A program made the position numbers and the translations under genes. The notes beneath the pieces were generated by a model, which did no database searches, was not told the DNA's origin, and was given only the letters and a program-made list of their open reading frames with translations. A DNA stretch of 36,105 nt from Candidatus Omnitrophota bacterium (lineage in GTDB: Bacteria; Omnitrophota; Gorgyraeia; Gygaellales; Gygaellaceae): positions 1-36,105 of the forward strand of contig JAGYNB010000008.1 of assembly GCA_018400015.1 (NCBI GenBank), written 5' to 3'. Shown here one piece after another: positions 1-28,172 of the stretch; position 1 is the first letter of the stretch; the number at the start of each line of letters is the position of its first letter.

Positions 1-1
1 T

Positions 2-1921
2 TTGGTAGATAGGCCTATAAGAATAATTGCCGATAGTTCAATAGATAAGAATTTTGGTACAGGCGCAGTAAAGGTTACTCCTGCTCACGACGTAAACGAC
101 TATGCTTTAGGTAAAAAACACAAACTTGAGTTTATTAATATCTTAAATTCTGACGGAACGATAAGTGATAATATCAATGTCTATAAAGGCCTGGACAGGT
201 TTAAGGCTAGAGAGATGGTTTTGGAAGATTTAAAAAAGAAGGATCTTTTTGTAAAAGAGCAGCCGCATAAGATCTCAGCAGGCCATTGTTATAGATGTCA
301 TACGATAATCGAGCCTTATTTGTCCAGGCAGTGGTTTGTGAAAATGAAACCTCTGGCCAAACCGGCAATAAAAGCAGTTAAAAGCGGTAAAATAAAGTTT
401 CATCCTAATCGCTGGACCAAAGTGTATCTTAACTGGATGGAGAATATTCACGATTGGTGCATATCCCGTCAGATTTGGTGGGGGCACAGAATCCCTATTT
501 GGTATTGTTCTGATTGCGGTAAGGTTTTTGCCAGCGTAGATGACGTAAAGGTATGCAAGAAATGTGCATCCGGTAATATAAGACAGGAAGAAGATGTTTT
601 AGATACCTGGTTTTCTTCATGGCTTTGGCCTTTTGCTACTTTTTACTGGCCGTTTGACATTCAGGATCCGGTGAAAAGAGCTCAGTATAAAAACGATTTA
701 AAATATTATTATCCTACGGCTGTTTTGGTAACTGCTCCAGAGATAATCTTTTTTTGGGTGGCCCGTATGATTATGGCTGGGTATGAATTTATGAAGGAGC
801 TCCCCTTTAAAGATGTTTATCTACACGGCACGGTGAGGGATTTAACCGGCAAGAAAATGTCTAAGTCTTTAGGTAATGTAATTGACCCTTTGGATATTAT
901 CGATAAATTCGGTGCCGATGCGTTAAGATTTAGTCTTATTTCGATTACTGCTACAGGCCAGGATGTGTTTTTATCTGAGGAAAAATTCCAGATGGGAAGG
1001 AATTTTGCCAATAAAATCTGGAATGCTTCTAGGTTCGTATTGATGAATCTCTCAGATGATGTCAATCGCGATCTCTGCGTATACGTAAAAAATGAGAATC
1101 TTGATTTAGCCAGTCGTTGGATAACAAGCGAATTTTATCATATGCTCACTTATTTGGAGCAGGCATTAGATAGTTATAATTTTAACGAAGCAGCAAACAT
1201 TATTTATGAATTCTTCTGGCATAAGTACTGCGATTGGTATCTTGAATTGATTAAACCAAATATTAAAGATGAGGGTGTGCAGTTGATTATGTATAAAGTT
1301 TTGGAAAAATCACTGCGCGTTATGCATCCATTTGTGCCATTTTTAACAGAAGAGTTGTGGCATAGGATCGATCCTAATAATGCTTCCATAATGGTCAGCA
1401 AGTGGCCGCATATTCAGAAGCAGCTTATTGACGAAGACGCCGAGAAAGAAATCAACTTTTTGATAAATTCAGTGACCAACATACGTAATCTAAGAACTCA
1501 GTTGAATTTAAAAGAATCCATCAAGGTAAAACTTATCGCTGTAGGCAAAAAGACCGGCCTTGGACGTGTAGAAAAACTTTCCGGCTATATAAAAAATCTT
1601 GCTAATGTATCCGAGCTGGTTTTTAGCGAGAACACACCTTTAATGAAGTCATTTTTGACATGTGTGGTAAATGAGGTGCAGTTTTTTATAGAACTTGAAG
1701 GTTTAATCGATATAGAAAAAGAAAAAACAAGAATCAGCAAAGAGATTGCTCAGACCGAGAAGATGGTTATTTCGAAATCACAAAGGCTGAATAATCCTTC
1801 TTTTGTAAAAAAGGCTCCCGCTGAAGTGGTTGAAAAAGAAAAAGATAACTTATCACAATTAGAAGAAAAGCTTTCTAAATGGAAAAAAACGTTAAATGAT
1901 TTACAAGGAAAAAGCAGTTAA
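2..1921 (+). CDS. valS: Valine--tRNA ligase, C-terminal part (gene cut by left window edge)
   Basis: Class I aminoacyl-tRNA synthetase that charges tRNA-Val in the cytoplasm. The reading frame is open to the left edge, so the N-terminal HIGH-containing part lies outside; the first codon seen (TTG) is internal. Visible in order: end of the CP1 editing domain (GTGAVKVTPAHD near residue 20), the cysteine-containing segments around CYRCH and CSDCGK, the catalytic signature KMSKS within GKKMSKSLGNV near residue 285, the anticodon-binding helical domain, and a final charged coiled coil from about residue 565 to the end, typical of the ValRS tRNA-binding arm. The KMSKS motif plus this C-terminal arm separate it from IleRS and LeuRS. 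The 3' end overlaps nadC by 26 nt. Only the missing 5' end is uncertain. Confidence 0.97.
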   Translation: MVDRPIRIIADSSIDKNFGTGAVKVTPAHDVNDYALGKKHKLEFINILNSDGTISDNINVYKGLDRFKAREMVLEDLKKKDLFVKEQPHKISAGHCYRCHTIIEPYLSRQWFVKMKPLAKPAIKAVKSGKIKFHPNRWTKVYLNWMENIHDWCISRQIWWGHRIPIWYCSDCGKVFASVDDVKVCKKCASGNIRQEEDVLDTWFSSWLWPFATFYWPFDIQDPVKRAQYKNDLKYYYPTAVLVTAPEIIFFWVARMIMAGYEFMKELPFKDVYLHGTVRDLTGKKMSKSLGNVIDPLDIIDKFGADALRFSLISITATGQDVFLSEEKFQMGRNFANKIWNASRFVLMNLSDDVNRDLCVYVKNENLDLASRWITSEFYHMLTYLEQALDSYNFNEAANIIYEFFWHKYCDWYLELIKPNIKDEGVQLIMYKVLEKSLRVMHPFVPFLTEELWHRIDPNNASIMVSKWPHIQKQLIDEDAEKEINFLINSVTNIRNLRTQLNLKESIKVKLIAVGKKTGLGRVEKLSGYIKNLANVSELVFSENTPLMKSFLTCVVNEVQFFIELEGLIDIEKEKTRISKEIAQTEKMVISKSQRLNNPSFVKKAPAEVVEKEKDNLSQLEEKLSKWKKTLNDLQGKSS

Positions 1922-2738
1922 GGACTTATTGTCGCTCACCTTAAAAGAAGATATTGCAACTGGCGATATCACATCCAGAATTTTAATTAATCCAAAAGAA
2001 AAAGCAAAAGCAAATATTATCGCAAAAGAAAATGGTGTTATTTGCGGGGTAGGCTTGATTAAAGAGATTATTTCTTTAGTTGATAAAAAAGCCAGAGTTA
2101 AACTGTTTGTCAAAGATGGTCAGCTGATAAAGAAGAATTCACCTATTGCGATAATAAACGGCAATAAGCGCTCTATTTTAAAATCAGAGAGAATTATTCT
2201 TAATTTTCTGGGGCATCTTTGCGGGGTCGCTACAAAAACCAAGATTTTTACTGATAAAGTAAAAGGTACAAAAGCAAAAATTATTGATACGCGTAAGACC
2301 ACACCCGGTATGAGGTTATTGCATAAATACGCAGTGCGTTGTGCAGGAGGTATTAATCATAGGTCAAGTCTTGACAAACAGATACTTATTAAAGATAATC
2401 ATATTAAAGGTCAGGATATACTTCAGGTTTTAAAACTTGCGCTTAAATATAAGCCTAAGAATATAAAAGTAGAGATTGAAGTTGAGAATTTAAAAGATTT
2501 TAAGAATGTATTAAGTTTTAAACCTGATATTATTATGCTTGATAACATGAAGCCAGCTGTTATGAAACAAGCTGTTATCCATAGGAATAGATTCAGCAAA
2601 GGTGTGTTGCTTGAGGCCTCAGGAAACGTGACTTTAAATAATGTTAGGAGCGTTGCTCTTACAGGAGTGGATTTTATATCTGTGGGAGAGCTGACTCATT
2701 CTGTTAAAAATCTAGATGTCAGCATGGAGTTTGTCTAA
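1896..2738 (+). CDS. nadC: Nicotinate-nucleotide pyrophosphorylase (quinolinate phosphoribosyltransferase)
   Basis: Converts quinolinate and PRPP to nicotinate mononucleotide, CO2 and pyrophosphate in de novo NAD synthesis. The 280-residue length is normal for the family. The signature stretch is clear: IIDTRKTTPGMRLLHKYAV, then CAGGINHR and ILIKDNHI (the Arg/His/Lys residues that bind quinolinate), followed by the barrel motifs KVEIEVENL, IIMLDNM, LLEASGNV and DFISVGELTHS. The start ATG lies inside the end of valS (26-nt overlap), which suggests translational coupling; no strong Shine-Dalgarno is visible. nadA and nadB are not in the window. Confidence 0.97.
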   Translation: MIYKEKAVKDLLSLTLKEDIATGDITSRILINPKEKAKANIIAKENGVICGVGLIKEIISLVDKKARVKLFVKDGQLIKKNSPIAIINGNKRSILKSERIILNFLGHLCGVATKTKIFTDKVKGTKAKIIDTRKTTPGMRLLHKYAVRCAGGINHRSSLDKQILIKDNHIKGQDILQVLKLALKYKPKNIKVEIEVENLKDFKNVLSFKPDIIMLDNMKPAVMKQAVIHRNRFSKGVLLEASGNVTLNNVRSVALTGVDFISVGELTHSVKNLDVSMEFV

Positions 2739-2747
2739 GGCAAGAAT

Positions 2748-3365
2748 ATGAAAAAAATACTTTTTTTTATTTTGTTATTTTCTTTTAGTAGTATTTGTTT
2801 TGCTCAAAGACATATAGAGCTTAAGACATACTATCCTTCTCCATACGGCAGTTATAAGGAGATGGATATAGAAGAAGGGATTATATTTGGTACGCATGAT
2901 TCTCCAAGCGATTATGTAGCAGATATTACTTGTAATGCTTCTAAAAGAGGTAAACTCGCTTTTGGTTTAAAGGATTCATCTGTTACTGGAGAAAGAAGAT
3001 ATTATTATTGTGATAGTATAGGCGGTGTTTGGGATTGGTATGAGGAAAACTCTGCCGGCGTTGAGACTACAGAAACAGGCGTTGGTTCCAGCGTTATGTA
3101 TTTAATGAGTACTGGCAGTTATCGTAATTGCCCTAGTGATTGGTTAAGTGCGGGTATGTCTCATTATTATAATGGAGATATTGGTGCCAATGTTGATGAA
3201 AGGGTTTGTTATCGAAGTGATGCTGCTTGTTTGGTAATTACATTTTTAGCCGGAAGTATTCCGAGTTGTCCAAGCGGCTGGGATAAGACTTTTTCAGGTT
3301 CTATGAGTGGCGGTGCTGGCGGCGGTGCTTCTGTGTATCAGACAACATGCTATAAATGTCCATAA
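2748..3365 (+). CDS. Secreted Cys-rich protein with TYYPSPYGSY N-terminal motif
   Basis: Function unknown. Residues 1-19 form a signal peptide (MKK, hydrophobic core, cleavage expected after CFA, leaving Gln20). Residues 27-36 read TYYPSPYGSY, the same motif at the same place as in the secreted protein at 9914-11239; I associate it with Omnitrophota exported proteins. The C-terminal third has two tandem units of about 46 residues: 123-154 and 169-201 each begin GS-x-x-x-CPS-x-W and end CY-[RK], with 26 and 27 residues between the paired cysteines, so disulphide-stabilised units are likely. Further cysteines are at 62, 88, 161 and 204. The ATG is 9 nt after nadC with only a weak AAGG upstream. 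It could be an extracellular surface or pilin-associated protein; this is inference. Confidence 0.8.
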   Translation: MKKILFFILLFSFSSICFAQRHIELKTYYPSPYGSYKEMDIEEGIIFGTHDSPSDYVADITCNASKRGKLAFGLKDSSVTGERRYYYCDSIGGVWDWYEENSAGVETTETGVGSSVMYLMSTGSYRNCPSDWLSAGMSHYYNGDIGANVDERVCYRSDAACLVITFLAGSIPSCPSGWDKTFSGSMSGGAGGGASVYQTTCYKCP

Positions 3366-3405
3366 TCTTTAATTTATATATTCCTTTCTATTTAACCTTA
3401 CCTTT

Positions 3406-5397
3406 ATGAATAGTTTTAAGTTAAAAAGTTGTTTTAAACCAAAAGGCGATCAACCCCAAGCGGTAAAGTTTTTAACCGAGTATATAAGAAGCAATAAAAA
3501 ACATCAGACTCTTTTAGGTGTTACCGGTTCAGGCAAGACCTTTACTTTAGCGAATGTAATAGCAAAGATAAATAAACCCACGCTTGTCATATCCCATAAT
3601 AAAACCTTGGCCGCGCAGCTTTATACTGAATTTAAGGATTTTTTCCCAGAAAATGCCGTGGAGTATTTTGTAAGCTACTACGATTATTACCAACCAGAAG
3701 CCTATATTCCCCAGACGGATACCTATATTGAAAAGGATTCATCAATCAATGAACGCCTTGATATGCTTCGGCTTTCAGCTACCAGCAGTCTTATGTCTAG
3801 GCGCGATGTAATTATCGTTGCATCTGTAAGCTGTATTTATAACTTGGGCTCACCCGATGAGTACAAGGGGCAGTTGGTTATGATCAATAAAGGCGATTTG
3901 CTCAACCGGGAGGAATTTTTATTGAGTCTTGTTAAGATCCAGTATGAAAGAAACGATTATGATTTTACTCGCGGTAAGTTCCGCGTCAGGGGCAATGTTA
4001 TCGAGATTTTTCCTGCGTACTTAGAATGGGCAATAAGGCTGGAGTTTGACGAGAGTAGAATTGTGAAAATCGCAAGGATAGATTATCTGACTGGGAAGAT
4101 TATTAATTTATTTGATAAGATAGCGATTTATCCTGCCAAGCATTTTTTGATTGAAGAATCTAAAAGGGATTCAGCACTTGAATCAATCAAAGAAGAATTA
4201 CAAAACAGATTAAAAGAGTTAAAGGACGAGAAAAAACTTCTTGAGGCGCAAAGATTAGAGTCGCGCACAAAATATGATTTGGAGATGCTTGCGGAAGTCG
4301 GATATTGTCATGGGATTGAGAATTATTCCCGGCATTTATCCGGAAGACCGGCTGGTTCAAGACCATATTGTTTGATTGACTATTTCCCGAAGGATTTTTT
4401 AACTATCATTGATGAAAGTCACGTTAGTGTACCACAGATCAGGGGAATGTATAATGGAGACAGGGCGAGAAAGAAAGTTTTGGTTGATTTCGGGTTTAGA
4501 CTTAAAAGCTGTTTGGATAACCGACCCTTAAGTTTTGATGAATTTGAGAACCTTATTAAACAGGTAGTTTTTGTTTCCGCTACTCCGGATGAATTTGAGG
4601 TTAAAAAATCTCAAGGAAGGGTTGTTGAACAGATAATCAGACCAACAGGGCTTTTGGATCCCGAGGTTATTGTTAGACCTATAAAGAATCAGATAGATGA
4701 TTTGGTTAAAGAATTAAAGCAGGTGAGTAAGAATAACCAGCGCAGTTTAGTAACTACGCTTACCAAGCGCATGGCAGAAGATTTAGCTAATTATCTAGAT
4801 GAGAAAAAAATCAAAACACAGTATTTGCATTCTGAGATTGATACGATAGAACGTGTAAAGATATTAAAAGACTTAAGAGAGAAAAAATTCGATTGTCTTG
4901 TTGGGGTTAATCTTTTAAGGGAAGGTTTAGATTTACCTGAGGTAGCACTTGTTGCAATAGTTGATGCGGATAAGGAGGGTTTCCTGCGTTCTGCCACCAG
5001 CCTTATTCAGGTCTCAGGCAGAGCCGCGCGTAATGTTGACGGCAGGGTTATAATGTATGCTGATAAGATTACAGGTTCAATGAAAAAAGCTATTGATGAA
5101 AGCAAGCGCCGTCGTAAGCTGCAGCTTGAATTCAATAAGAAAAATAAAATTACGCCTAAAAGTATCATCAAGGCAATAAAAAACGGTATTGAGCAGTTTT
5201 ATCAGGCAAAGGATGTTGAGGAAAAGGTTACCGGTTTAGATAAACAGTCTTTTGAATTGGATGAGTTGATTGCCCAACTTGGTTTAGATATGGAGAAGGC
5301 AGCGCGTAATCTTGATTTTGAAAAAGCGATTAAATTGCGTGACGAGATGAATGATTTTAAAAAGAAGTTTAAAAAAACAAAGAATAAAAATGGATGA
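3406..5397 (+). CDS. uvrB: UvrABC excinuclease subunit B
   Basis: DNA-damage verification helicase of nucleotide excision repair; it is loaded by UvrA and recruits UvrC. Its 663 residues match the family. Visible: Walker A GVTGSGKT at 38-45, the beta-hairpin region [17 protein letters not shown] near residue 90, the [10 protein letters not shown] segment, helicase motifs [24 protein letters not shown] and [15 protein letters not shown], and a C-terminal UVR motif (about 625-657) that binds UvrC. No Shine-Dalgarno precedes the ATG; the 40-nt gap upstream is pyrimidine-rich and I see no convincing promoter. The stop overlaps the following birA start by 8 nt (ATGGATGA). Confidence 0.98.
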
Positions 5398-6178
5398 AGG
5401 AATAACAAGGGTTTTTAAAGATCACGAAGAGAAGCTGAAAATTAACTCTCAAATAATCGGTTTACATGTATATCATTATAGATCTTTAGAGTCTACTAAT
5501 GATTTAGCATTTTCGCTTGCGTTAAAAGGCTTAAAAGAAGGCAATATCATTGTTGCTGATAGGCAAACTAAAGGGAAAGGCCGCTTAGGCAGAAAATGGT
5601 ACTCTCCGAAAGGAGGATTGTATTTATCAGTTATTTTACGGCCTGATATTCCATTTTTAAGGGTAAGTTTAGTAACGATATTCTCAGCAGTATCAGTGTG
5701 TTCTGTGCTAAGGCGTTTAGGTATAAATGCCTGGATAAAATGGCCCAATGATATCATGGTAGCCAATAAGAAAATTTGTGGTATATTGGTGGAAATGGAT
5801 TCTACTATTGATAGAGTAAAATTCATTATTACAGGAATAGGCATTAATAATAAGGTTAATAAAAGCGATTTGGTGCACATTGCCACAAGTATATATGAGG
5901 AAACAGCCCAATTAATATCCAATAAAGACCTGTTAAGGTTCTTAAGCGAAGAATTGGATAAAAACTACGCGATATTTTTAAAACAGAATTACACTTATTT
6001 TACAGACAAGCTTAAAGCCATGTCGAGAATGATTAATAAAAATGTGATTTTAAAAGTTAATTCCAAGGAACACAAGGGAAAAGTTAAAGGTTTTGATGAT
6101 GACGGTTCTTTGGTTATGGAAATAAACAAAAAGAAGAAAAAGTTTTTAAGCGCGGATAATGTTAAGGTGCTAGGATGA
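5390..6178 (+). CDS. birA: Biotin--[acetyl-CoA-carboxylase] ligase, catalytic type without HTH
   Basis: Attaches biotin to the biotin carboxyl carrier protein through biotinyl-AMP. I choose the ATG at 5390 (262 aa) because it forms a tight 8-nt overlap with the uvrB stop; the frame stays open to an in-frame ATG at 5351, but those 13 residues are uvrB-encoding sequence. Visible: SLESTND near 32-38, the biotin/AMP loop GKGRLGRKW (62-70), KWPND (117-121), [10 protein letters not shown] with the catalytic Lys, and a C-terminal SH3-like domain (about 215-262). The roughly 60-residue N-terminal winged helix of E. coli BirA is absent, so it should be an enzyme only and not a biotin-operon repressor. 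It overlaps coaX by 4 nt (ATGA). Confidence 0.93.
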
Positions 6179-6924
6179 TTTTAACAGTTGATATAGGTAA
6201 TACCAATACAACCCTAGGGTTTTTTAAAGACAATAGACTTATAAATAGGAAAGATTTTCCTACAGGAAAAATCTGCAGTCAAAAAGATAAACTGAAAAAA
6301 TTGACAAAAAACTATGTGATTGAAGATTGTATAGTTTGTAGTGTTGTGCCCAAAGTTGAAAACAAGCTTAATTTAATCTTAAAATCATTATTACGTAAAA
6401 AACCTTTGATTGTTGGACGTGATATAAAGCTCCCTGTAAAGAATAAATATAAAAATCCGAAAGAAGTTGGTATTGACAGGCTCGTTAATGCCTTTGGTGG
6501 GAGTCTATTGTATAAAAATAATTTAATACTTATTGATTTTGGAACTGCGGTCACTTTTGATGTAGTAACAAAAAAAAGAGAATATCTGGGTGGTTTGATA
6601 TTGCCGGGATTGAAACTTTCATTGGATGCTCTTTATGAGAAAACAGCGCTTTTACCCAAGGTCAGGCTTTCAAAACCTAAGGGGTTAATCGGTAGAACTA
6701 CAAAAGAAAGTATTTTAAACGGGGTGGTCTATGGTTTCAGCGCTTTAACTGATGATATAGTTTTGCGTCTTGCTAAAAATATTAAAGGCAAATATTCAGT
6801 TGTGGCAACAGGCGGTAGCGCAAGCCTTTTAAAAAAATACGCCAAGAGGATAGATTATGTTGAAGATAATTTAACTTTAAAATCCATATTTTTATTGTAT
6901 ACGTATTATCATGAAAAAAACTAA
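6175..6924 (+). CDS. coaX: Type III pantothenate kinase
   Basis: Phosphorylates pantothenate, the first step of coenzyme A synthesis. The 249 residues show the ASKHA-fold motifs of CoaX: VDIGNTNTTLG (5-15, phosphate loop), GIDRLVNAFGG (99-109) with the catalytic Asp101, IDFGTAVTFD (120-129), GGLILPGL (139-146) and VATGGSASLL near the C-terminus. These distinguish it from the CoaA and CoaW types. It overlaps birA by 4 nt and mazG by 14 nt. panE and panB, which make its precursor, also lie in this window but in other transcription units. Confidence 0.96.
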   Translation: MILTVDIGNTNTTLGFFKDNRLINRKDFPTGKICSQKDKLKKLTKNYVIEDCIVCSVVPKVENKLNLILKSLLRKKPLIVGRDIKLPVKNKYKNPKEVGIDRLVNAFGGSLLYKNNLILIDFGTAVTFDVVTKKREYLGGLILPGLKLSLDALYEKTALLPKVRLSKPKGLIGRTTKESILNGVVYGFSALTDDIVLRLAKNIKGKYSVVATGGSASLLKKYAKRIDYVEDNLTLKSIFLLYTYYHEKN

Positions 6925-7300
6925 ATTTAACGAGCTTAAAGATATTTTTGATACTTTACATGGTGAAAACGGCTGTCTCTGGGATAAACAGCAGACCCAC
7001 GAAAGCCTGATTCCATATCTAAAGGAAGAAACAGAAGAGTTTATTGAAACTATAGGTAAAGATACCTATGAGCATATGAAAGAAGAATTAGGGGATTTAT
7101 TATTACAGGTGATGTTTCACGCTCAGATCGCCAAGAAGCATAATAAATTTGATATAGAAGATGTGATTGCTACTCTTATTGAAAAACTGAAAAGACGTCA
7201 TCCTCATGTTTTTGCTGGCGTAAAGGTTAAAAGTTCTCAGGAGATAATTAGCAATTGGAAGAAAATAAAAAAAGAAGAAAAAACCAATAAGAATAAATAA
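6911..7300 (+). CDS. mazG: MazG-type nucleoside triphosphate pyrophosphohydrolase, single domain
   Basis: Expected to hydrolyse NTPs or dNTPs to the monophosphate and pyrophosphate, as housekeeping of the nucleotide pool. Visible: LHGENGCLWDKQQTHESL (16-33), the metal-binding EE-x-x-E cluster at 39-43, EELGDLLLQV (58-67) with the second Glu/Asp pair, and RRHPHVF (95-101). At 129 residues it is one MazG domain, about half of the 263-residue two-domain E. coli protein. The tail (118-129) is lysine-rich. It starts inside coaX, so it is probably translationally coupled. Substrate preference cannot be read from sequence. Confidence 0.93.
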   Translation: MKKTKFNELKDIFDTLHGENGCLWDKQQTHESLIPYLKEETEEFIETIGKDTYEHMKEELGDLLLQVMFHAQIAKKHNKFDIEDVIATLIEKLKRRHPHVFAGVKVKSSQEIISNWKKIKKEEKTNKNK

Positions 7301-7302
7301 AC

Positions 7303-7725
7303 ATGAACGCTTTTACTTGGGCTATACTTACGGCTTTAATTTGGGGTGTTGTTCCTTTAATTGAAAAAAGCGGTTTAGCTAAGGTAACACCTCTTACAGG
7401 GTTATTTTTTAGGTCAATAGGTGTTGTTTTTGGGTTGATTATTTTAAGTATTTTCATGGTTGATTATAAGCAAATTAAATCAGTTGATTTGAAAAGCGTA
7501 GCGCTTTTGATGTTAGGAGGATTTTTAGCTAGTTTTGTTGCTCAGTTGTTTTTTTATCAAGGTTTAAAGATAGGACAGGTTTCTAAAATGGTGCCCTTAT
7601 CAGGTACTTATCCGTTGGTTGCTTTTGTACTAGGGATAATTATTTTTAAAGAATCGCTTACTCCTTTAAAGGTTTTAGGTGTGTGTTTTATCAGTTTTGG
7701 CGTGTGGGCTTTGCATTTTAAATAA
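7303..7725 (+). CDS. Half-size EamA (DMT superfamily) membrane protein
   Basis: Integral membrane protein of 140 residues with about five predicted helices (approximately 4-19, 33-52, 65-86, 96-113, 120-138). It matches one EamA repeat: AILTALIWGVVPLIEK at the N-terminus and PLVAFVLGIIIFKESLTPLK near the end. Most EamA transporters have two such repeats (about 300 aa), so this one presumably works as a dimer, like small multidrug resistance relatives. The frame is clean at both ends and the next promoter starts just after the stop, so I see no sign of a broken longer gene. The ATG comes 2 nt after mazG. The substrate is unknown. Confidence 0.85.
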   Translation: MNAFTWAILTALIWGVVPLIEKSGLAKVTPLTGLFFRSIGVVFGLIILSIFMVDYKQIKSVDLKSVALLMLGGFLASFVAQLFFYQGLKIGQVSKMVPLSGTYPLVAFVLGIIIFKESLTPLKVLGVCFISFGVWALHFK

Positions 7726-7733
7726 AAAAAATC

Positions 7734-7761
7734 TTGACAAAATTTAAAACATACATATAAT
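7734..7761 (+). promoter_or_regulatory. Sigma70-type promoter of groESL
   Basis: Perfect -35 TTGACA (7734-7739), 16-nt spacer and perfect -10 TATAAT (7756-7761). Transcription should start near 7768, leaving a leader of about 95 nt that contains the CIRCE element. This is a vegetative promoter with repressor control rather than a heat-shock-sigma promoter. Confidence 0.9.
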
Positions 7762-7798
7762 TAAGTTTCTAGCAGGAGGTATTTTTTTTGCCTAGTTG

Positions 7799-7825
7799 TT
7801 AGCACTCAAGACTTGAGACTGCTAA
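7799..7825 (+). promoter_or_regulatory. CIRCE operator (HrcA site) in the groESL leader
   Basis: Arms TTAGCACTC (7799-7807) and GACTGCTAA (7817-7825) are separated by exactly 9 nt. This matches the CIRCE consensus TTAGCACTC-N9-GAGTGCTAA except for one base in the right arm (C for G). It should bind HrcA and repress the chaperonin operon in the absence of stress. hrcA itself is not in the window. Confidence 0.92.
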
Positions 7826-7861
7826 TTTTTAATAACTCGTTTAAAACAAGGAGGAGGTACT

Positions 7862-8149
7862 ATGAAGATACAACCACTAGGTGAGCGCGTAGTTTTAAAA
7901 CAGCTTGAAGCTGAGAATAAAACCAAGGGAGGTATAGTTTTGCCTGATTCAGCCAAGGAAAAACCGCAGGAGGCTGAAGTTATTGCTGTTGGTAAAGGTA
8001 AGACAGTTGATGGTAAAGTTATTCCTTTGGAAGTTAAAGTAGGCGATAAAGTTCTTTATGGTAAGTATTCTGGCACTGAAATTACCACAAAAGACGCAGA
8101 AGAGCTGATTATAATAAAAGAAGAAGATATTTTAGCAATTTTAAAGTAA
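7862..8149 (+). CDS. groES: Co-chaperonin GroES
   Basis: Lid of the GroEL folding chamber. The 95-residue length is typical. Visible: the N-terminal [13 protein letters not shown], the mobile loop region [16 protein letters not shown] (about 21-36) that docks on Gro[18 protein letters not shown], and the end EEDILAIL. The start is set by a very strong Shine-Dalgarno, AAGGAGGAGG (7848-7857). It is the first gene of the CIRCE-controlled unit, 19 nt before groEL. Confidence 0.98.
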
Positions 8150-8153
8150 TTAA

Positions 8154-9809
<1,656 letters not shown>

Positions 9810-9834
9810 TCCACTGCTTGAAAATAAGTAAAAT

Positions 9835-9872
9835 AAAAAGGGCGATAGATTAATTTCTGTCGCTCTTTTTTT
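9835..9872 (+). terminator. Rho-independent terminator after groEL
   Basis: A stem of about 15 bp: AAAAAGGGCGATAGA pairs (with G-T wobbles) with TTCTGTCGCTCTTTTT across a short TTAAT loop, and the hairpin ends in a run of T. It closes the groESL operon 25 nt after the stop codon and is the only clear intrinsic terminator in the window. Confidence 0.85.
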
Positions 9873-9873
9873 G

Positions 9874-9902
9874 TTGACTAATACTGTAAAACTTCTTACA
9901 AT
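9874..9902 (+). promoter_or_regulatory. Promoter of the S74-domain secreted protein gene
   Basis: -35 TTGACT (9874-9879), 17-nt spacer, -10 TACAAT (9897-9902), one mismatch from consensus in each box. It begins directly after the groEL terminator. The expected transcription start (about 9908-9910) is only a few bases before the ATG at 9914, so the mRNA would be nearly leaderless; no Shine-Dalgarno is present. Confidence 0.75.
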
Positions 9903-9913
9903 AATATACACTT

Positions 9914-11239
9914 ATGAAGAAAAGCATTATTTTTATAGTTGGTTTAATTGTTTTAGTTTCTTTTGTTTTCGCTCAAGAGATTGAGGAAATCCGTATCGTT
10001 ACTTACTATCCTGCGCCATACGGAAGTTATACAGAGCTTCGTTCTCAGAGAATGGCAATTGGAGATAATTATAGTAATAGCGCAAGTTATGAGTGGGGTT
10101 CTACGATCAGTTCGTCAGCTGATTTGGTCGTTGAAGGTAATGTTGGAATTGGGACAGCAGAGCCTATAGGCACGCTTGTAGTTGGCAATAACGTTTCCGG
10201 CCTAGGTATTGGCGGAAACAGCTGGATAAGTGTAGGATTATCAGGAGCGAGAAATGTATCCGGTATTGTTTTAGGCAGTGATAGTGTAAATAACAGATAT
10301 CTGCAATTAGATTGGAATGATAATGTTAATCGCGCTCAGATTAATACTTCAAGCGCAACCCAGCCGTTGGTGTTACAAAATTTAAGCAATGGCAATGTGG
10401 GTATTGGGATAGACAATCCTTCATCTAAACTGCATATAGGGGATGGTTCATTAGCTATTTCTGAAAGCACAACAGGGCATGGGTTATTTGCTAATTGGGA
10501 TGGGGCAATAGATACAGGAACATTAGGTATCTGGGATGGCGGATGGGGACAGTTTTATTTTAATACAGTTGCACCTGCTAGTACTCGTTCAGCTGGTATT
10601 GGAGTAAATACCAAACCCTCTTATCCAATACATATACGAAGTACTGGTTGGCAGATGTATCTTGATGCTGCAGTAGCAACAGGCGGGTCAGGTTTTGGTC
10701 TTGGGGTTCAAGGTACGGATTATTGGAGCGTATGGAAACACGGTTCAGGTTCAAATCATGATCTGATTTTTAGATGGGCTCCTACAGATACGGAAATCGT
10801 TCGTATCGATGGAGCAAATCAGCGTTTCGGTATTTTAAGGGATCCCACAGCAAACGCCTTGGAGGTTAATGGCAATGCTTCAAAGAGCGTAGCTGGTTCT
10901 TGGCTGGCCAATTCAGATATAAGGATAAAAACCGCAATTGAAACTGTTACAGGCGGAAAAGATATAATTGAAAAACTTCGCCCGGTTAAGTTTCGCTACA
11001 AACAAGATTATCTTAAAAAACATCCGGAAATCAAGGATCGTTATTATTACAATTTTATAGCACAGGAGTTTAAGGATGTTTTTCCTCATAGTGTAAGTGA
11101 TAACGGTGAGGGGTTGTTACAGCTGGATACTTATAATGTTAATATTTTTCTTGTTGCTGCAGTGCAGGAGATTATTGAAGAAAATAATACCTTAAAAAAA
11201 CGCATAGAAACTCTTGAAGCTCAGTTTAATAAAGAGTAA
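9914..11239 (+). CDS. Secreted fibre-like protein with TYYPAPYGSY motif and S74 chaperone domain
   Basis: Residues 1-20 are a signal peptide (cleavage expected after VFA, leaving Gln21). TYYPAPYGSY at 30-39 matches the motif in the protein at 2748-3365. The middle has phage-tail-fibre-like segments: NVGIGTAEPIGTLVVG and a second copy, NVGIGIDNPSSKLHIG. The last 110 residues resemble the endosialidase-type intramolecular chaperone (peptidase S74): S334-D-x-R-x-K339 with the Ser-Lys spacing of the self-cleavage site, then EKLRPVKFRYK, FIAQEFKDVFP and a terminal coiled coil (about 415-441). Family knowledge: this domain trimerises beta-helical fibres and cuts itself off at the Ser. I infer an exported trimeric surface fibre. 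No phage genes are near. The gene has its own promoter. Confidence 0.85.
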   Translation: MKKSIIFIVGLIVLVSFVFAQEIEEIRIVTYYPAPYGSYTELRSQRMAIGDNYSNSASYEWGSTISSSADLVVEGNVGIGTAEPIGTLVVGNNVSGLGIGGNSWISVGLSGARNVSGIVLGSDSVNNRYLQLDWNDNVNRAQINTSSATQPLVLQNLSNGNVGIGIDNPSSKLHIGDGSLAISESTTGHGLFANWDGAIDTGTLGIWDGGWGQFYFNTVAPASTRSAGIGVNTKPSYPIHIRSTGWQMYLDAAVATGGSGFGLGVQGTDYWSVWKHGSGSNHDLIFRWAPTDTEIVRIDGANQRFGILRDPTANALEVNGNASKSVAGSWLANSDIRIKTAIETVTGGKDIIEKLRPVKFRYKQDYLKKHPEIKDRYYYNFIAQEFKDVFPHSVSDNGEGLLQLDTYNVNIFLVAAVQEIIEENNTLKKRIETLEAQFNKE

Positions 11240-11281
11240 ATTTATCCCACCTGTATTTTTAAGCTTTTTATAACAATAATC

Positions 11282-11309
11282 TTGACAATTCATGAATTTA
11301 GAGTATAAT
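11282..11309 (+). promoter_or_regulatory. Sigma70-type promoter of guaB3-guaA
   Basis: Perfect -35 TTGACA (11282-11287), 16-nt spacer and perfect -10 TATAAT (11304-11309). The leader is about 28 nt and includes Shine-Dalgarno AGGAGA (11334-11339) before the ATG at 11345. I see no intrinsic terminator between the previous gene and this promoter. Confidence 0.9.
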
Positions 11310-11344
11310 TAGCTAAATTTTATTATTAAATATAGGAGATTGTT

Positions 11345-12505
11345 ATGGCAGAATGGATTGGCATAAATAAAAGAGCCAGAAAGTGTTACGGCTTTGATGA
11401 AGTAGCTTTAGCGCCGGGAATGGTTACTATTAATCCTCAGGAGGTAGATACCACATTTAGTATTAATAATAAGAAATTCCGTGTTCCCATAATTGCTGCG
11501 GCTATGGACGGTGTGGTGGATGTGCGCTTAGCAGTTGCAATGAGCAAACTTGGCGGCCTGGCAGTACTTAATCTTGACGGAGTGCAAACCAGGTATGATA
11601 ACCCAGAAGAGGTTTTAGTTAAAATAGCCAAGGCAACACCGGAAAAAGCCACAAAATTGGTTCAGCAGATATATACCAAACCGATAAAAGAAAAACTGAT
11701 CTCAAGAAGAATATATGAGATCAAGAAAAATAAAGGCATTGCCGCAGTAAGCTGTATTCCCCAAAATGCCGAGCGTTTTGGCAGAATCGCAGAGGATGCA
11801 GGCGTGGATATGTTTGTTGTGCAGTCAACGGTTGTGAGTACAAGACATATTACCTCGCAGTATAAGACACTTAATCTTAAAAAGTTATGTACTCAGATGA
11901 AGGTGCCGGTTGCTATCGGTAACTGCGTTACTTATGCTATGACATTAGAGCTATTGGAAGCCGGCGCATCGGCAGTATTAATCGGAGTGGGCCCTGGTGC
12001 AGCATGTACAACAAGAGGGGTTTTAGGTATCGGCGTACCCCAGGTTACGGCAACTTTGGATGCTGCAGCAGCAAGAGATTTTTATTATAAAAGAACCGGA
12101 AAATATATCCCTATTATTACCGATGGCGGAATGCGTACAGGTGGTGATATCTGTAAGGCTTTTGCCAGCGGTGCAGATGCGGTAATGGTCGGTTCTACCT
12201 TTGCTAAGGCAAAGGAGGCTCCGGGAAAAGGTTTCCATTGGGGTATGGCAACAAGCCATGCAAATCTGCCGCGGGGAACGCGTATAAAAGTTGGTATCAG
12301 CGGCAGCCTAGAAGAGTTATTGTTCGGACCTGCAAAAGTTGATGATGGCTCACAGAATATAATGGGAGCATTGATGACTTCCATGGGTTCTTTGGGAGCA
12401 AAGAATATAAAAGAAATGCATGATGTTGAAATAATCATTGCGCCTTCAATACAGACAGAAGGTAAAATATTTCAGGTGGTGCAAAGAGTAGGAATGGGAA
12501 AATAA
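11345..12505 (+). CDS. guaB3: GuaB3-type IMP dehydrogenase family protein
   Basis: Expected to oxidise IMP to XMP with NAD, the committed step to GMP. The 386 residues form one IMPDH barrel without the CBS pair of standard GuaB (about 490 aa). The catalytic loop is [15 protein letters not shown] with Cys221. [20 protein letters not shown] is the phosphate-binding region, and [19 protein letters not shown] plus [18 protein letters not shown] match the GuaB3 subfamily that I remember from actinobacteria and cyanobacteria, not GMP reductase. The downstream guaA overlaps it by 1 nt (TAATG) and uses XMP, which supports the IMPDH role. A regulatory, non-enzymatic role cannot be excluded. Confidence 0.9.
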
Positions 12506-14052
12506 TGGCCAGCAAAGATACTGTTTTAATACTTGATTTTGGTTCACAGTATACGCAGCTTATCGCAAGACGTGTTAGGGAAAATAAGGTTTTCAGTAAA
12601 ATTATTTCTTATAAGACGCCGGCTGAGGAAATAAAAAAACTTAAACCCAAAGGTCTGATTCTTTCCGGGGGTCCTGCTAGCGTTTATGATAAGAAGCCGC
12701 CTATGCCGGATAAGAGAATTTTCAAGCTGGGGATTCCTATTTTGGGTATTTGTTACGGAGTTCAGGTTATCTGCGAAGTGTTAGGCGGTAAAGTAAAGTC
12801 TTCAAAGGCTCATGAATACGGAAAAACCGAGCTTTTTATAGATGACAATACTACGCTTTTTTATTCTTTGCCGGCAAATATTTCCAGTTGGATGAGTCAT
12901 GCTGACAGCGTTGTTAAGATGCCTGCCGGCTTTAAAACAATGGCCCATAGTTTAAGTACGCCTAATGCCGCTATCAGCAATAAAGCAAAAAAGATTTTTG
13001 GATTACAGTTTCATCCCGAGGTTGCACATACTCAAAGAGGCAATCAGATTGTTAATAATTTTTTGTTTAGGGTTTGCCGTTGTGCACCGCGCTGGGTAAT
13101 GCATTCTTTGGTGAAAAAGAGTATTGACGATATCCGCGCAACCGTTGGTAAGAAAAAAATGGTTGTTTGCGGTTTAAGCGGTGGGATAGATTCTTCTGTT
13201 GTTGCAGCAATGATTCATCGTGCAATCGGAAGACGTTTAAAATGTATTTTTATCGACAACGGGCTTTTAAGGAAAAATGAAGCAAAACAGGTGAGAAAAG
13301 TTTTTGGTGAATACATGAGACTTAATCTTACAGTTGTCGATGCCAGCAAAAGATTTTTGCATAAATTAAAGGGTGTGACCGACCCTGAGTTAAAAAGAAA
13401 AGTTATCGGCGAAGAATTTATTAAAGTATTTGAGGAAAAAGCAAAATCTTTAAAGAACGTTGAGTATTTAGCGCAAGGCACTCTTTATCCGGATGTTGTT
13501 GAGTCTGTTTCCGCTTTTGGCGGTCCCACGGCGAAAATAAAGAGCCACCATAATGTAGGGGGCCTTCCGGCAAACATGAAGCTTAAGCTTTTAGAGCCGT
13601 TAAGGGACCTTTTTAAGGATGAGGTGCGTTTAATTGCCAAAGACTTAAAGCTTCCCGACAATCTTATTCATCGGCAGCCGTTTCCTGGTCCAGGTCTTGC
13701 AATAAGGATTCTAGGGGATGTTACTCCGGAACGACTCGATATCTTAAGAGAAGCTGACGAAAGAGTCATTGAGGAAATCCAAAAGGCACGGCTGTATGAA
13801 CAGATATGGCAGTCTTTTGCAGTGTTGTTGCCTATAAAGACAGTAGGCGTTATGGGTGATGAAAGAACTTATGAAAATGTTGTGGCCCTACGTTGTGTAA
13901 ACAGTCTTGATGGCATGACCGCAGACTGGGTAAAACTTCCTTATGATGTCATGGAAAAGATCTCCCTGCGTATTATTAATGAAGTAAAGGGAGTGAACCG
14001 CGTTGTTTACGATATAAGCTCTAAACCTCCGTCAACCATTGAGTGGGAATAA
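12505..14052 (+). CDS. guaA: GMP synthase (glutamine-hydrolysing)
   Basis: Aminates XMP to GMP using glutamine and ATP. The 515 residues have the full architecture. Class I glutamine amidotransferase: [10 protein letters not shown] with nucleophile Cys83, and [13 protein letters not shown] with His170 and Glu172. ATP pyrophosphatase domain: [13 protein letters not shown] (223-235). The C-terminal dimerisation domain begins near [19 protein letters not shown] and ends [10 protein letters not shown], the standard C-terminus. It is translationally coupled to guaB3 by a 1-nt overlap, and both belong to the unit transcribed from 11282. Confidence 0.99.
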
Positions 14053-28114: not shown

Positions 28115-28120
28115 TCTGTA

Positions 28121-28149
28121 TTGACATAATAGTGCTAAGTTGATAAAAT
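28121..28149 (+). promoter_or_regulatory. Promoter of panB with inverted repeat over the -10
   Basis: -35 TTGACA (28121-28126, perfect), 17-nt spacer, -10 TAAAAT (28144-28149, one mismatch). An inverted repeat GTTGAT (28139-28144), AAA, ATCAAC (28148-28153) covers the -10. The leader to the ATG at 28173 would be about 17 nt. Confidence 0.75.
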
Positions 28150-28172
28150 CAACACTTGGGAAAAGTTAAACA

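What the first reader, a model, noticed from the sequence alone, without database searches (positions are those of the whole stretch)
2748..2855. Shared post-signal module TYYP-[SA]-PYGSY in two unrelated secreted proteins
Seen: both exported proteins (starting at 2748 and 9914) have signal peptides ending FA followed by Gln, then, within 10 residues, TYYPxPYGSY and E-[ML]. The rest of the two proteins is unrelated. Such a fixed position next to the cleavage site suggests a sorting, anchoring or assembly tag. I recall the motif from Omnitrophota genomes but know of no assigned function.
Basis: partly seen in the sequence, partly recalled or inferred. Interest (0 to 1): 0.58.

Follow-up and report, generated by a model that had tools for sequence, protein, structure and literature searches.

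The report
Conserved N-terminal module of fibre proteins

Summary
Both window proteins carry TYYP[SA]PYGSY 8-10 residues after a signal-peptide cleavage site, and only their first ~60 residues match. The motif is the core of a ~20-residue module, A|xExITITTYYP[SA]PYGxYxxL, always next to the signal peptide. A profile finds it in 148 of 270 Omnitrophota species (7 copies here, up to 21) and 23 of 149 Elusimicrobiota, against 0 of 57 other genomes of a control phylum, with no match in phage, plasmid, viral or PDB collections. The proteins are not simply unrelated: they form a mosaic family of tail-fibre-like proteins whose C-termini vary (S74 chaperone, C1q, Cys-rich and others) and are swapped between two species of one genus. 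The module core is under purifying selection (pN/pS 0.22; flanks 0.67-0.94). The best reading is the cell-proximal docking end of an adhesive fibre, like the N-terminal domain of Bdellovibrio MAT fibres, though much shorter; docking is inferred. A CsgG channel is not required, and sortase, lipobox and pilin signals are absent. Unexpectedly, 22 of 108 module genes precede genes of the His-Xaa-Ser radical-SAM system, mostly those with Cys-rich tips. No paper found mentions the motif.

The parts
2748..2804 (+). Sec signal peptide of protein 1 (residues 1-19, predicted cleavage FA|Q)
   Evidence: sequence; helix 2-17 in the AlphaFold2 model
2805..2864 (+). N-terminal module of protein 1, QRHIELKTYYPSPYGSYKEM; invariant YYPxPxG at 2829-2849
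   Evidence: profile A1 matches 2802-2891, E 1.0e-12
2865..3362 (+). Distal part of protein 1, Cys-rich, no Pfam, PHROG or NCBIfam match and no close relative found
   Evidence: poorly predicted; not the Hxs-linked tip class (E 2.9)
9914..9973 (+). Sec signal peptide of protein 2 (residues 1-20, predicted cleavage FA|Q)
   Evidence: sequence; helix 3-18 in the model
9974..10039 (+). N-terminal module of protein 2, QEIEEIRIVTYYPAPYGSYTEL
   Evidence: profile A1 matches 9983-10069, E 2.6e-15
10040..10912 (+). Fibre shaft of protein 2, with VGIGTxxPxxxLxV-type repeats as in phage tail fibres
   Evidence: PHROG tail-fibre matches begin at residue 62 or later; low model confidence
10913..11095 (+). 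Peptidase_S74 intramolecular chaperone, with the sequence SDIRIK fitting the SDxxxK autoproteolysis motif
   Evidence: PF13884 3.2e-12, place; Foldseek to MyRF ICA 7dc3 2.9e-6; SDxxxK as stated in PMC10769870
11129..11233 (+). C-terminal helix after the S74 domain (residues 406-440)
   Evidence: AlphaFold2 model, pLDDT above 90

Best explanation
The motif is the core of a short module that forms the mature N-terminus of a large family of mosaic, phage-tail-fibre-like exported proteins of Omnitrophota and Elusimicrobiota. The Sec signal peptide is removed 7-10 residues before TYYP in most members, leaving ITITTYYP[SA]PYGxYxxL at the end of the chain. This end is most likely the fixed, cell-proximal attachment point: it docks the fibre, probably a trimer, on one common cell-envelope partner, while the shaft and the exchangeable C-terminal tip (S74 chaperone, C1q-like, Cys-rich and others) face outwards and bind targets. 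Shown here: position, two-phylum spread, purifying selection on the core, conserved head with variable tail, tip swapping within a genus, tail-fibre and S74 relationship. Inferred: surface location, trimerisation, docking, and adhesion as the task.
For: Post-signal position in 149 of 155 proteins. Profile in 148 of 270 Omnitrophota and 23 of 149 Elusimicrobiota genomes, 1 of 58 in the control phylum, that one being the genome it was chosen for. Core pN/pS 0.22 with near-saturated synonymous change (pS 0.69) among the 7 own paralogues; neighbouring segments 0.67-0.94. Modules of 126 proteins link into 1 component, the last 100 residues of 114 of them into 43 components (the module was the selection criterion, so its unity is partly by construction). 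Pfam S74 in 18 of 126, C1q in 1; one PHROG tail-fibre family matches 50 of 126. Same genus: window 9914 versus a G128 protein has 124 of 160 identical over residues 1-160 and 5 of 23 to 15 of 39 per 40-residue block beyond 200; a second pair has 100 of 119 over residues 1-120 and mostly 10-30% per block beyond 160. No TM-like segment after the module in 122 of 126 and no LPXTG, so the N-terminus is the only common candidate for attachment. S74 genomes are mostly module genomes, 48 of 53.
Against: No partner was found; no neighbour gene is common to all. AlphaFold2 gives the module no confident structure, so a folded docking domain is not shown; the monomer model says little about a trimer. Many members are short (median 242 aa), unlike long adhesive fibres. 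Localisation and trimerisation are untested. 5 of 53 S74 genomes lack the module, so fibres can do without it. The S74 association is not corrected for phylogeny.
Confidence: 0.55

Rival explanations
1. Export address: the module is read by an outer-membrane translocation machine, as the N22 segment of CsgA is read by CsgG, and does not serve as a lasting anchor.
For: Same place and length as N22 (22 residues, not cleaved, bound by CsgG and sufficient to direct secretion; PMC7217966 passages). Extended, poorly folded in the models. Many different passengers carry it.
Against: CsgG itself is absent from this genome and from the same-genus genome with 8 copies (genomes 93.5% and 94% complete). 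Secretins are nearly universal in the phylum, 268 of 270, so they neither support nor exclude a secretin route. No exporter was found genetically linked to the family as a whole.
Confidence: 0.25
2. Structural cap: the module only nucleates and closes the N-terminal end of the trimeric beta-fibre and has no outside partner.
For: Aromatic and proline-rich, lies shortly before the VGIGT-type fibre repeats in many members. Phage-fibre-like architecture.
Against: Members whose distal part shows no fibre relationship, such as window 2748 (no PHROG match), keep it; the module was not found in viral contigs or phage records.
Confidence: 0.12
3. Recognition element of the His-Xaa-Ser radical-SAM system: the module or signal region recruits HxsD/HxsB, which modify the protein before export.
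For: 22 of 108 module genes with 450 nt downstream are followed by HxsD, and 21 of these 22 loci also by HxsB; CC in the last 20 residues 19 of 32 versus 3 of 76. HxsB identified over its NCBIfam cut-off in 4 of 4 complete genes tested.
Against: 86 of 108 have no such neighbour; the link follows the tip class, not the module. No Hxs gene neighbours the window genes. A separate HxsA4 substrate lies in one such locus.
Confidence: 0.05
4. Relic of recent gene duplication or conversion, with no function of its own.
For: Many paralogues in one genome (up to 21), tandem pairs and triplets.
Against: Synonymous sites in the core are near saturation while the protein is kept; flanking segments of the same genes are not kept. 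Kept across two phyla.
Confidence: 0.03

Closest known systems
Bdellovibrio MAT (mosaic adhesive trimeric) fibre proteins (PMC10769870, passages read)
   Same: Signal peptide, then an invariant N-terminal part thought to sit at the cell surface, then a variable fibre and tip; S74 and non-S74 members; TNF-like tips there, one C1q here; many paralogues per genome; tip swapping.
   Different: MAT has a ~130-residue beta-rich domain after the signal peptide, here the common part is ~20 residues. MATs are typically ~1,000 aa, here the median is 242 aa. The paper's text does not name Omnitrophota or Elusimicrobiota.
S74 / intramolecular chaperone proteins: endosialidase-type phage fibres, MyRF ICA (7dc3), 3gw6
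   Same: C-terminal domain of window 9914 and 18 of 126 members.
   Different: The module was not found in phage records or viral contigs; most module proteins have no S74.
CsgA N22 segment and CsgG (curli)
   Same: Short uncleaved segment right after the signal peptide (PMC7217966 passages).
   Different: Different sequence; no CsgG in this genome; many passengers instead of one amyloid.
Bacteroidetes lipoprotein export signal (PMC5080379, search listing only)
   Same: A surface-export signal close to the start of the mature protein (its exact place and form are recalled, not read here).
   Different: No acylated Cys: lipobox-like string in 1 of 126.
His-Xaa-Ser (Hxs) radical-SAM system, TIGR03978 HxsB, TIGR03976 HxsD
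   Same: Neighbours of 22 of 108 module genes.
   Different: Those fibres have no HxS in 13 of 15 listed and one HxS each in the other two; no product of the system is known to me.

Membership tests
Bdellovibrio MAT fibres | Conserved ~130-aa beta-rich domain immediately after the signal peptide | tested here: not met
   Only ~20-40 residues are common to the family; no direct comparison with MAT sequences was made
Bdellovibrio MAT fibres | Variable adhesive tips, S74 and non-S74 subfamilies | tested here: met
   S74 18 of 126, C1q 1, others; 43 C-terminal components of 114; that the tips are adhesive is inferred
Bdellovibrio MAT fibres | Trimeric surface fibre | not testable with these tools
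   monomer models only
Peptidase_S74 (window 9914 only) | PF13884 over cut-off, SDxxxK, ICA fold | tested here: met
   47 bits against 22; SDIRIK in sequence; 7dc3 E 2.9e-6
Curli-type export (CsgG) | CsgG in the same genome | tested here: not met
   no match in G000 or G128; 92 of 270 genomes have one
Lipoprotein export signal | Lipobox Cys at +1 | tested here: not met
   1 of 126 lipobox-like; both window proteins have Gln after FA
Sortase substrates | C-terminal LPXTG-type signal | tested here: not met
   0 of 126; sortase genes were not searched
Type IV pilins | Prepilin cleavage motif before the hydrophobic segment | tested here: not met
   0 of 126 by a simple pattern
His-Xaa-Ser system | HxsB and HxsD next to the gene | tested here: not met
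   not for the window genes (ORFs read by eye); met for 22 of 108 relatives, HxsB over cut-off in 4 of 4 complete genes, HxsD in 3 of 6

The most novel reading that the evidence does not exclude
The YYP module is the address label of an undescribed surface-display system shared by two bacterial phyla: one unknown envelope receptor accepts many interchangeable fibres, and a branch with Cys-rich tips is chemically modified by a His-Xaa-Ser-type radical-SAM maturase encoded in the same operon.
Probability: 0.3. Interest if true: 0.82.

Novelty: new variant of a known kind. Interest (0 to 1): 0.62.

Why it matters
Omnitrophota are widespread and mostly uncultured, and have been proposed to be predators or parasites on genomic and isotope evidence (PMC10066038, passages); which molecules they would use to hold their prey or host is open. 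A common, short, searchable module that marks a whole repertoire of fibre proteins gives a list of candidate adhesins in more than half of the sampled Omnitrophota genomes and a defined test for their anchor. If the module is transferable it would be a new type of surface-display signal. The operons with HxsB/HxsD give the His-Xaa-Ser system, of whose product I know no description, new candidate substrates.

Tried and rejected
Sortase, lipobox and pilin signals: looked for as sequence patterns and not found beyond one lipobox-like string. CsgG: rejected as an obligatory partner. Secretins: present almost everywhere, so no information. A phage or plasmid origin of the module: no match in viral contigs, phage records or plasmids, though the shafts and S74 tips are phage-like. 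Known domain: no Pfam, NCBIfam or PHROG family was found that covers the module (for 41-43 only family counts, not positions, were seen); best PDB match E 0.22. Restriction to the window's order, suggested by the strict DNA pattern (32 of the 33 positive genomes), was wrong: the profile finds 84 genomes in other orders of the class and 12 in other classes. Two apparent exceptions to the two-phylum rule: L108, labelled Planctomycetales, shares its GTDB phylum with genomes whose hits lie at the same places as those of the Omnitrophota survey (28 of 78), so the label is likely wrong; L109, labelled Bacillota, is alone (1 of 58) on a 5.6-kb contig, so misbinning or transfer. Heat-shock linkage: noted, not pursued. 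RNA elements: none in 1-12600. Structure of window 2748: model too poor to search (mean pLDDT 57), so no fold search was made.

Limits of counts. The 155 proteins are distinct by a 40-residue key, duplicates dropped; 126 with start and stop were used as full proteins, 114 of these for C-termini, and 108 of 124 outside the window for downstream genes. Starts and cleavage sites come from my own simple rules, not from SignalP. The HxsD and HxsB profiles were built from the neighbours themselves; examples were checked with NCBIfam. The tip profile was built from Hxs-linked proteins, so its 14 of 14 is partly circular; the CC count is independent of it.

Full report
What is in the window. The two ORFs at 2748-3365 and 9914-11239 are as described: a Sec-type signal peptide ending in FA, then Gln, then TYYP[SA]PYGSY 8-10 residues on, then E-M or E-L. 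They align to each other only over about the first 60 residues. The second protein ends in a Peptidase_S74 intramolecular chaperone (PF13884, 3.2e-12; nearest solved fold MyRF ICA 7dc3) and its middle matches phage tail-fibre families from residue 62 on. The first protein has a Cys-rich distal part with no match in Pfam, NCBIfam or PHROGs at E 0.01. Both genes stand alone among what I read as housekeeping genes (by eye, not from a call: nadC and uvrB around the first, groES-groEL and guaB around the second).

More copies in the same genome. A looser DNA pattern finds seven copies in the 1.41-Mb genome, the profile the same number: the two in the window, one after rho on C12, one in an arginine/lysine biosynthesis region on C2, and three in a row on C21 (neighbours named by eye). 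All seven start with a hydrophobic signal segment.

Extent. By record title 76 are Omnitrophota-type and 27 Elusimicrobia-type, 6 'bacterium', one Planctomycetales and one Bacillota (counted by eye). Viral contigs: none. From these and other loci I collected 155 distinct proteins; 149 have a hydrophobic segment within 45 residues before the motif, and the remaining 6 start at or near a locus end. Y-Y-P-x-P-x-G is invariant in all 155 because the collecting pattern asks for it; the residues around it, not asked for by the protein pattern, give the consensus xxExxTITTYYPSPYGxYxxL. By a simple cleavage rule the motif lies 7-10 residues after the cut in 102 of 143 and 5-19 in all. A profile of 83 modules (A1) matches 148 of 270 Omnitrophota genomes (52 of 57 in the window's order, own and same-genus genomes included; 84 in other orders of the class; 12 in other classes; up to 21 copies), 23 of 149 Elusimicrobiota and, in the phylum of the Bacillota-labelled hit, only that hit (1 of 58). 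The Planctomycetales-labelled hit shares its phylum with genomes having hits at the same places as in the Omnitrophota survey (28 of 78), so its label is probably wrong. Phage and plasmid records: no match. PDB: best E 0.22.

One mosaic family, not two unrelated proteins. Of 126 complete members, 18 have S74, 2 Gly_rich_2, 2 Peptidase_G2 (weak), 1 C1q, and one PHROG tail-fibre family alone matches 50. The last 100 residues of 114 members fall into 43 groups with no detectable similarity between groups, while the modules of all 126 link into one (the latter is partly by selection). In the genome of the same genus (G128, near Candidatus Gygaella obscura by shared contigs), the tips are swapped: window 9914 and the gene on G128 C17 share 29-34 of 40 residues per block up to residue 160 and then drop to 5 of 23 to 15 of 39 beyond 200; the C12 protein and the G128 C8 protein share 100 of 119 over the first 120 residues and then mostly 10-30% per block beyond 160. 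The gene after rho is present in both species but its product is only 29% identical, while the flanking proteins are 96% and 85% identical. Between what I read as apbE and panB, G128 has a 528-aa module gene where the window has 58 bases.

Selection. Among the seven own paralogues, the ten-codon core has pS 0.69 and pN 0.15 (ratio 0.22); signal peptide 0.94, pre-core 0.67, post-core 0.89. So the core is old and kept, not recently copied.

How it most likely works. The proteins carry a cleavable signal peptide, mostly no later membrane segment (122 of 126), no LPXTG, no prepilin motif, and a lipobox-like string in 1 of 126. What they share is the mature N-terminus. The design, a fixed head with exchangeable tips, is that of phage tail fibres and of Bdellovibrio MAT fibres, where the invariant N-terminal domain is thought to bind a surface element (PMC10769870, passages). 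I therefore take the module as the cell-side docking end (0.55). Whether it is a lasting dock or an export address like CsgA N22 (PMC7217966, passages) cannot be told from sequence (rival, 0.25). CsgG itself is absent from this genome and its sister although together they have 15 copies. Secretins are in 268 of 270 genomes, so they do not discriminate. S74 genomes are mostly module genomes, 48 of 53 against 100 of 217 of the rest (Fisher 1e-9), not corrected for phylogeny. AlphaFold2 monomer models give the S74 domain high confidence and the module low confidence; this fits an extended end or an end that folds only in a complex, and proves neither.

An unexpected neighbour system. Clustering the genes around the GTDB loci showed mostly what I read as housekeeping genes, but also a repeated operon: module gene, then HxsD, in some loci a second HxsD-like gene, then the radical-SAM maturase HxsB (TIGR03978, 485-537 bits against a cut-off of 370 in 4 of 4 complete genes; HxsD over cut-off in 3 of 6). 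22 of 108 module genes with enough sequence downstream have it: 6 in Omnitrophota genomes, 12 Elusimicrobia-labelled, 4 unlabelled (with titles and G handles). The link follows the tip: 19 of 32 proteins with CC in the last 20 residues against 3 of 76 without (Fisher 5e-10). In one Elusimicrobium locus (L086) a His-Xaa-Ser repeat protein (HxsA4, 1.7e-24) lies a few genes on, so the fibre does not simply replace HxsA. The window genes do not have these neighbours, and whether this genome has HxsB elsewhere is untested.

Literature. The motif strings gave no paper in the held open library; the searches for Omnitrophota, Elusimicrobiota and tail fibres listed nothing that describes the family by title or start of abstract, but most subscription papers are not held. 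His-Xaa-Ser with radical SAM gave two papers; I read passages of PMC9062424, which treats HxsB and HxsC as putative maturases.

Verdict. It is a new variant of a known kind, a mosaic tail-fibre-like family with its own short N-terminal module, whose partner is unknown.

Noticed in passing
L086:2777-7114 (also L121, L019, L030, L078, L144 and others): Operon of a module gene with HxsD and HxsB, in L086 also an HxsA4 repeat protein and further radical-SAM genes; the Omnitrophota loci L121, L019 and L030 have an extra HxsD-like gene.
   Followed up: partly
L011:859-3216 and L158:1205-3546: Three module genes in a row, in the same order in both species, each with its own motif variant (PSPTG, PSPDG, PTPYG), beside what look like hspR, hsp20, hrcA, grpE and dnaK genes (named by eye).
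   Followed up: no
window 7799-7825: CIRCE-like inverted repeat (1 mismatch, 0 expected) before groES; the module gene at 9914 follows groEL by about 100 bases.
   Followed up: no
L159:5440-6012: Counterpart of the C2 gene in the sister species with YCP instead of YYP, a rare departure from the core.
   Followed up: no
L155:4019-5605 versus window 28115-28172: A module gene present in one species of the genus and absent from the same slot in the other, before a likely panB gene.
   Followed up: partly
L011:1527-2657 (end): One member ends in a very Cys-rich tail (CPKPSCLPDCDDCDCCCDGSCSSCPCD).
   Followed up: no
G331 C1 and G358 C11 (Elusimicrobiota): Weak module matches (E about 1e-5) in clustered ORFs of 520-714 aa, possibly a diverged branch.
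   Followed up: no
L109 (JAMDEM010000044.1): A Bacillota-labelled 5.6-kb contig with a module protein (658-residue open frame), alone in its phylum: misbinned contig or transfer.
   Followed up: partly
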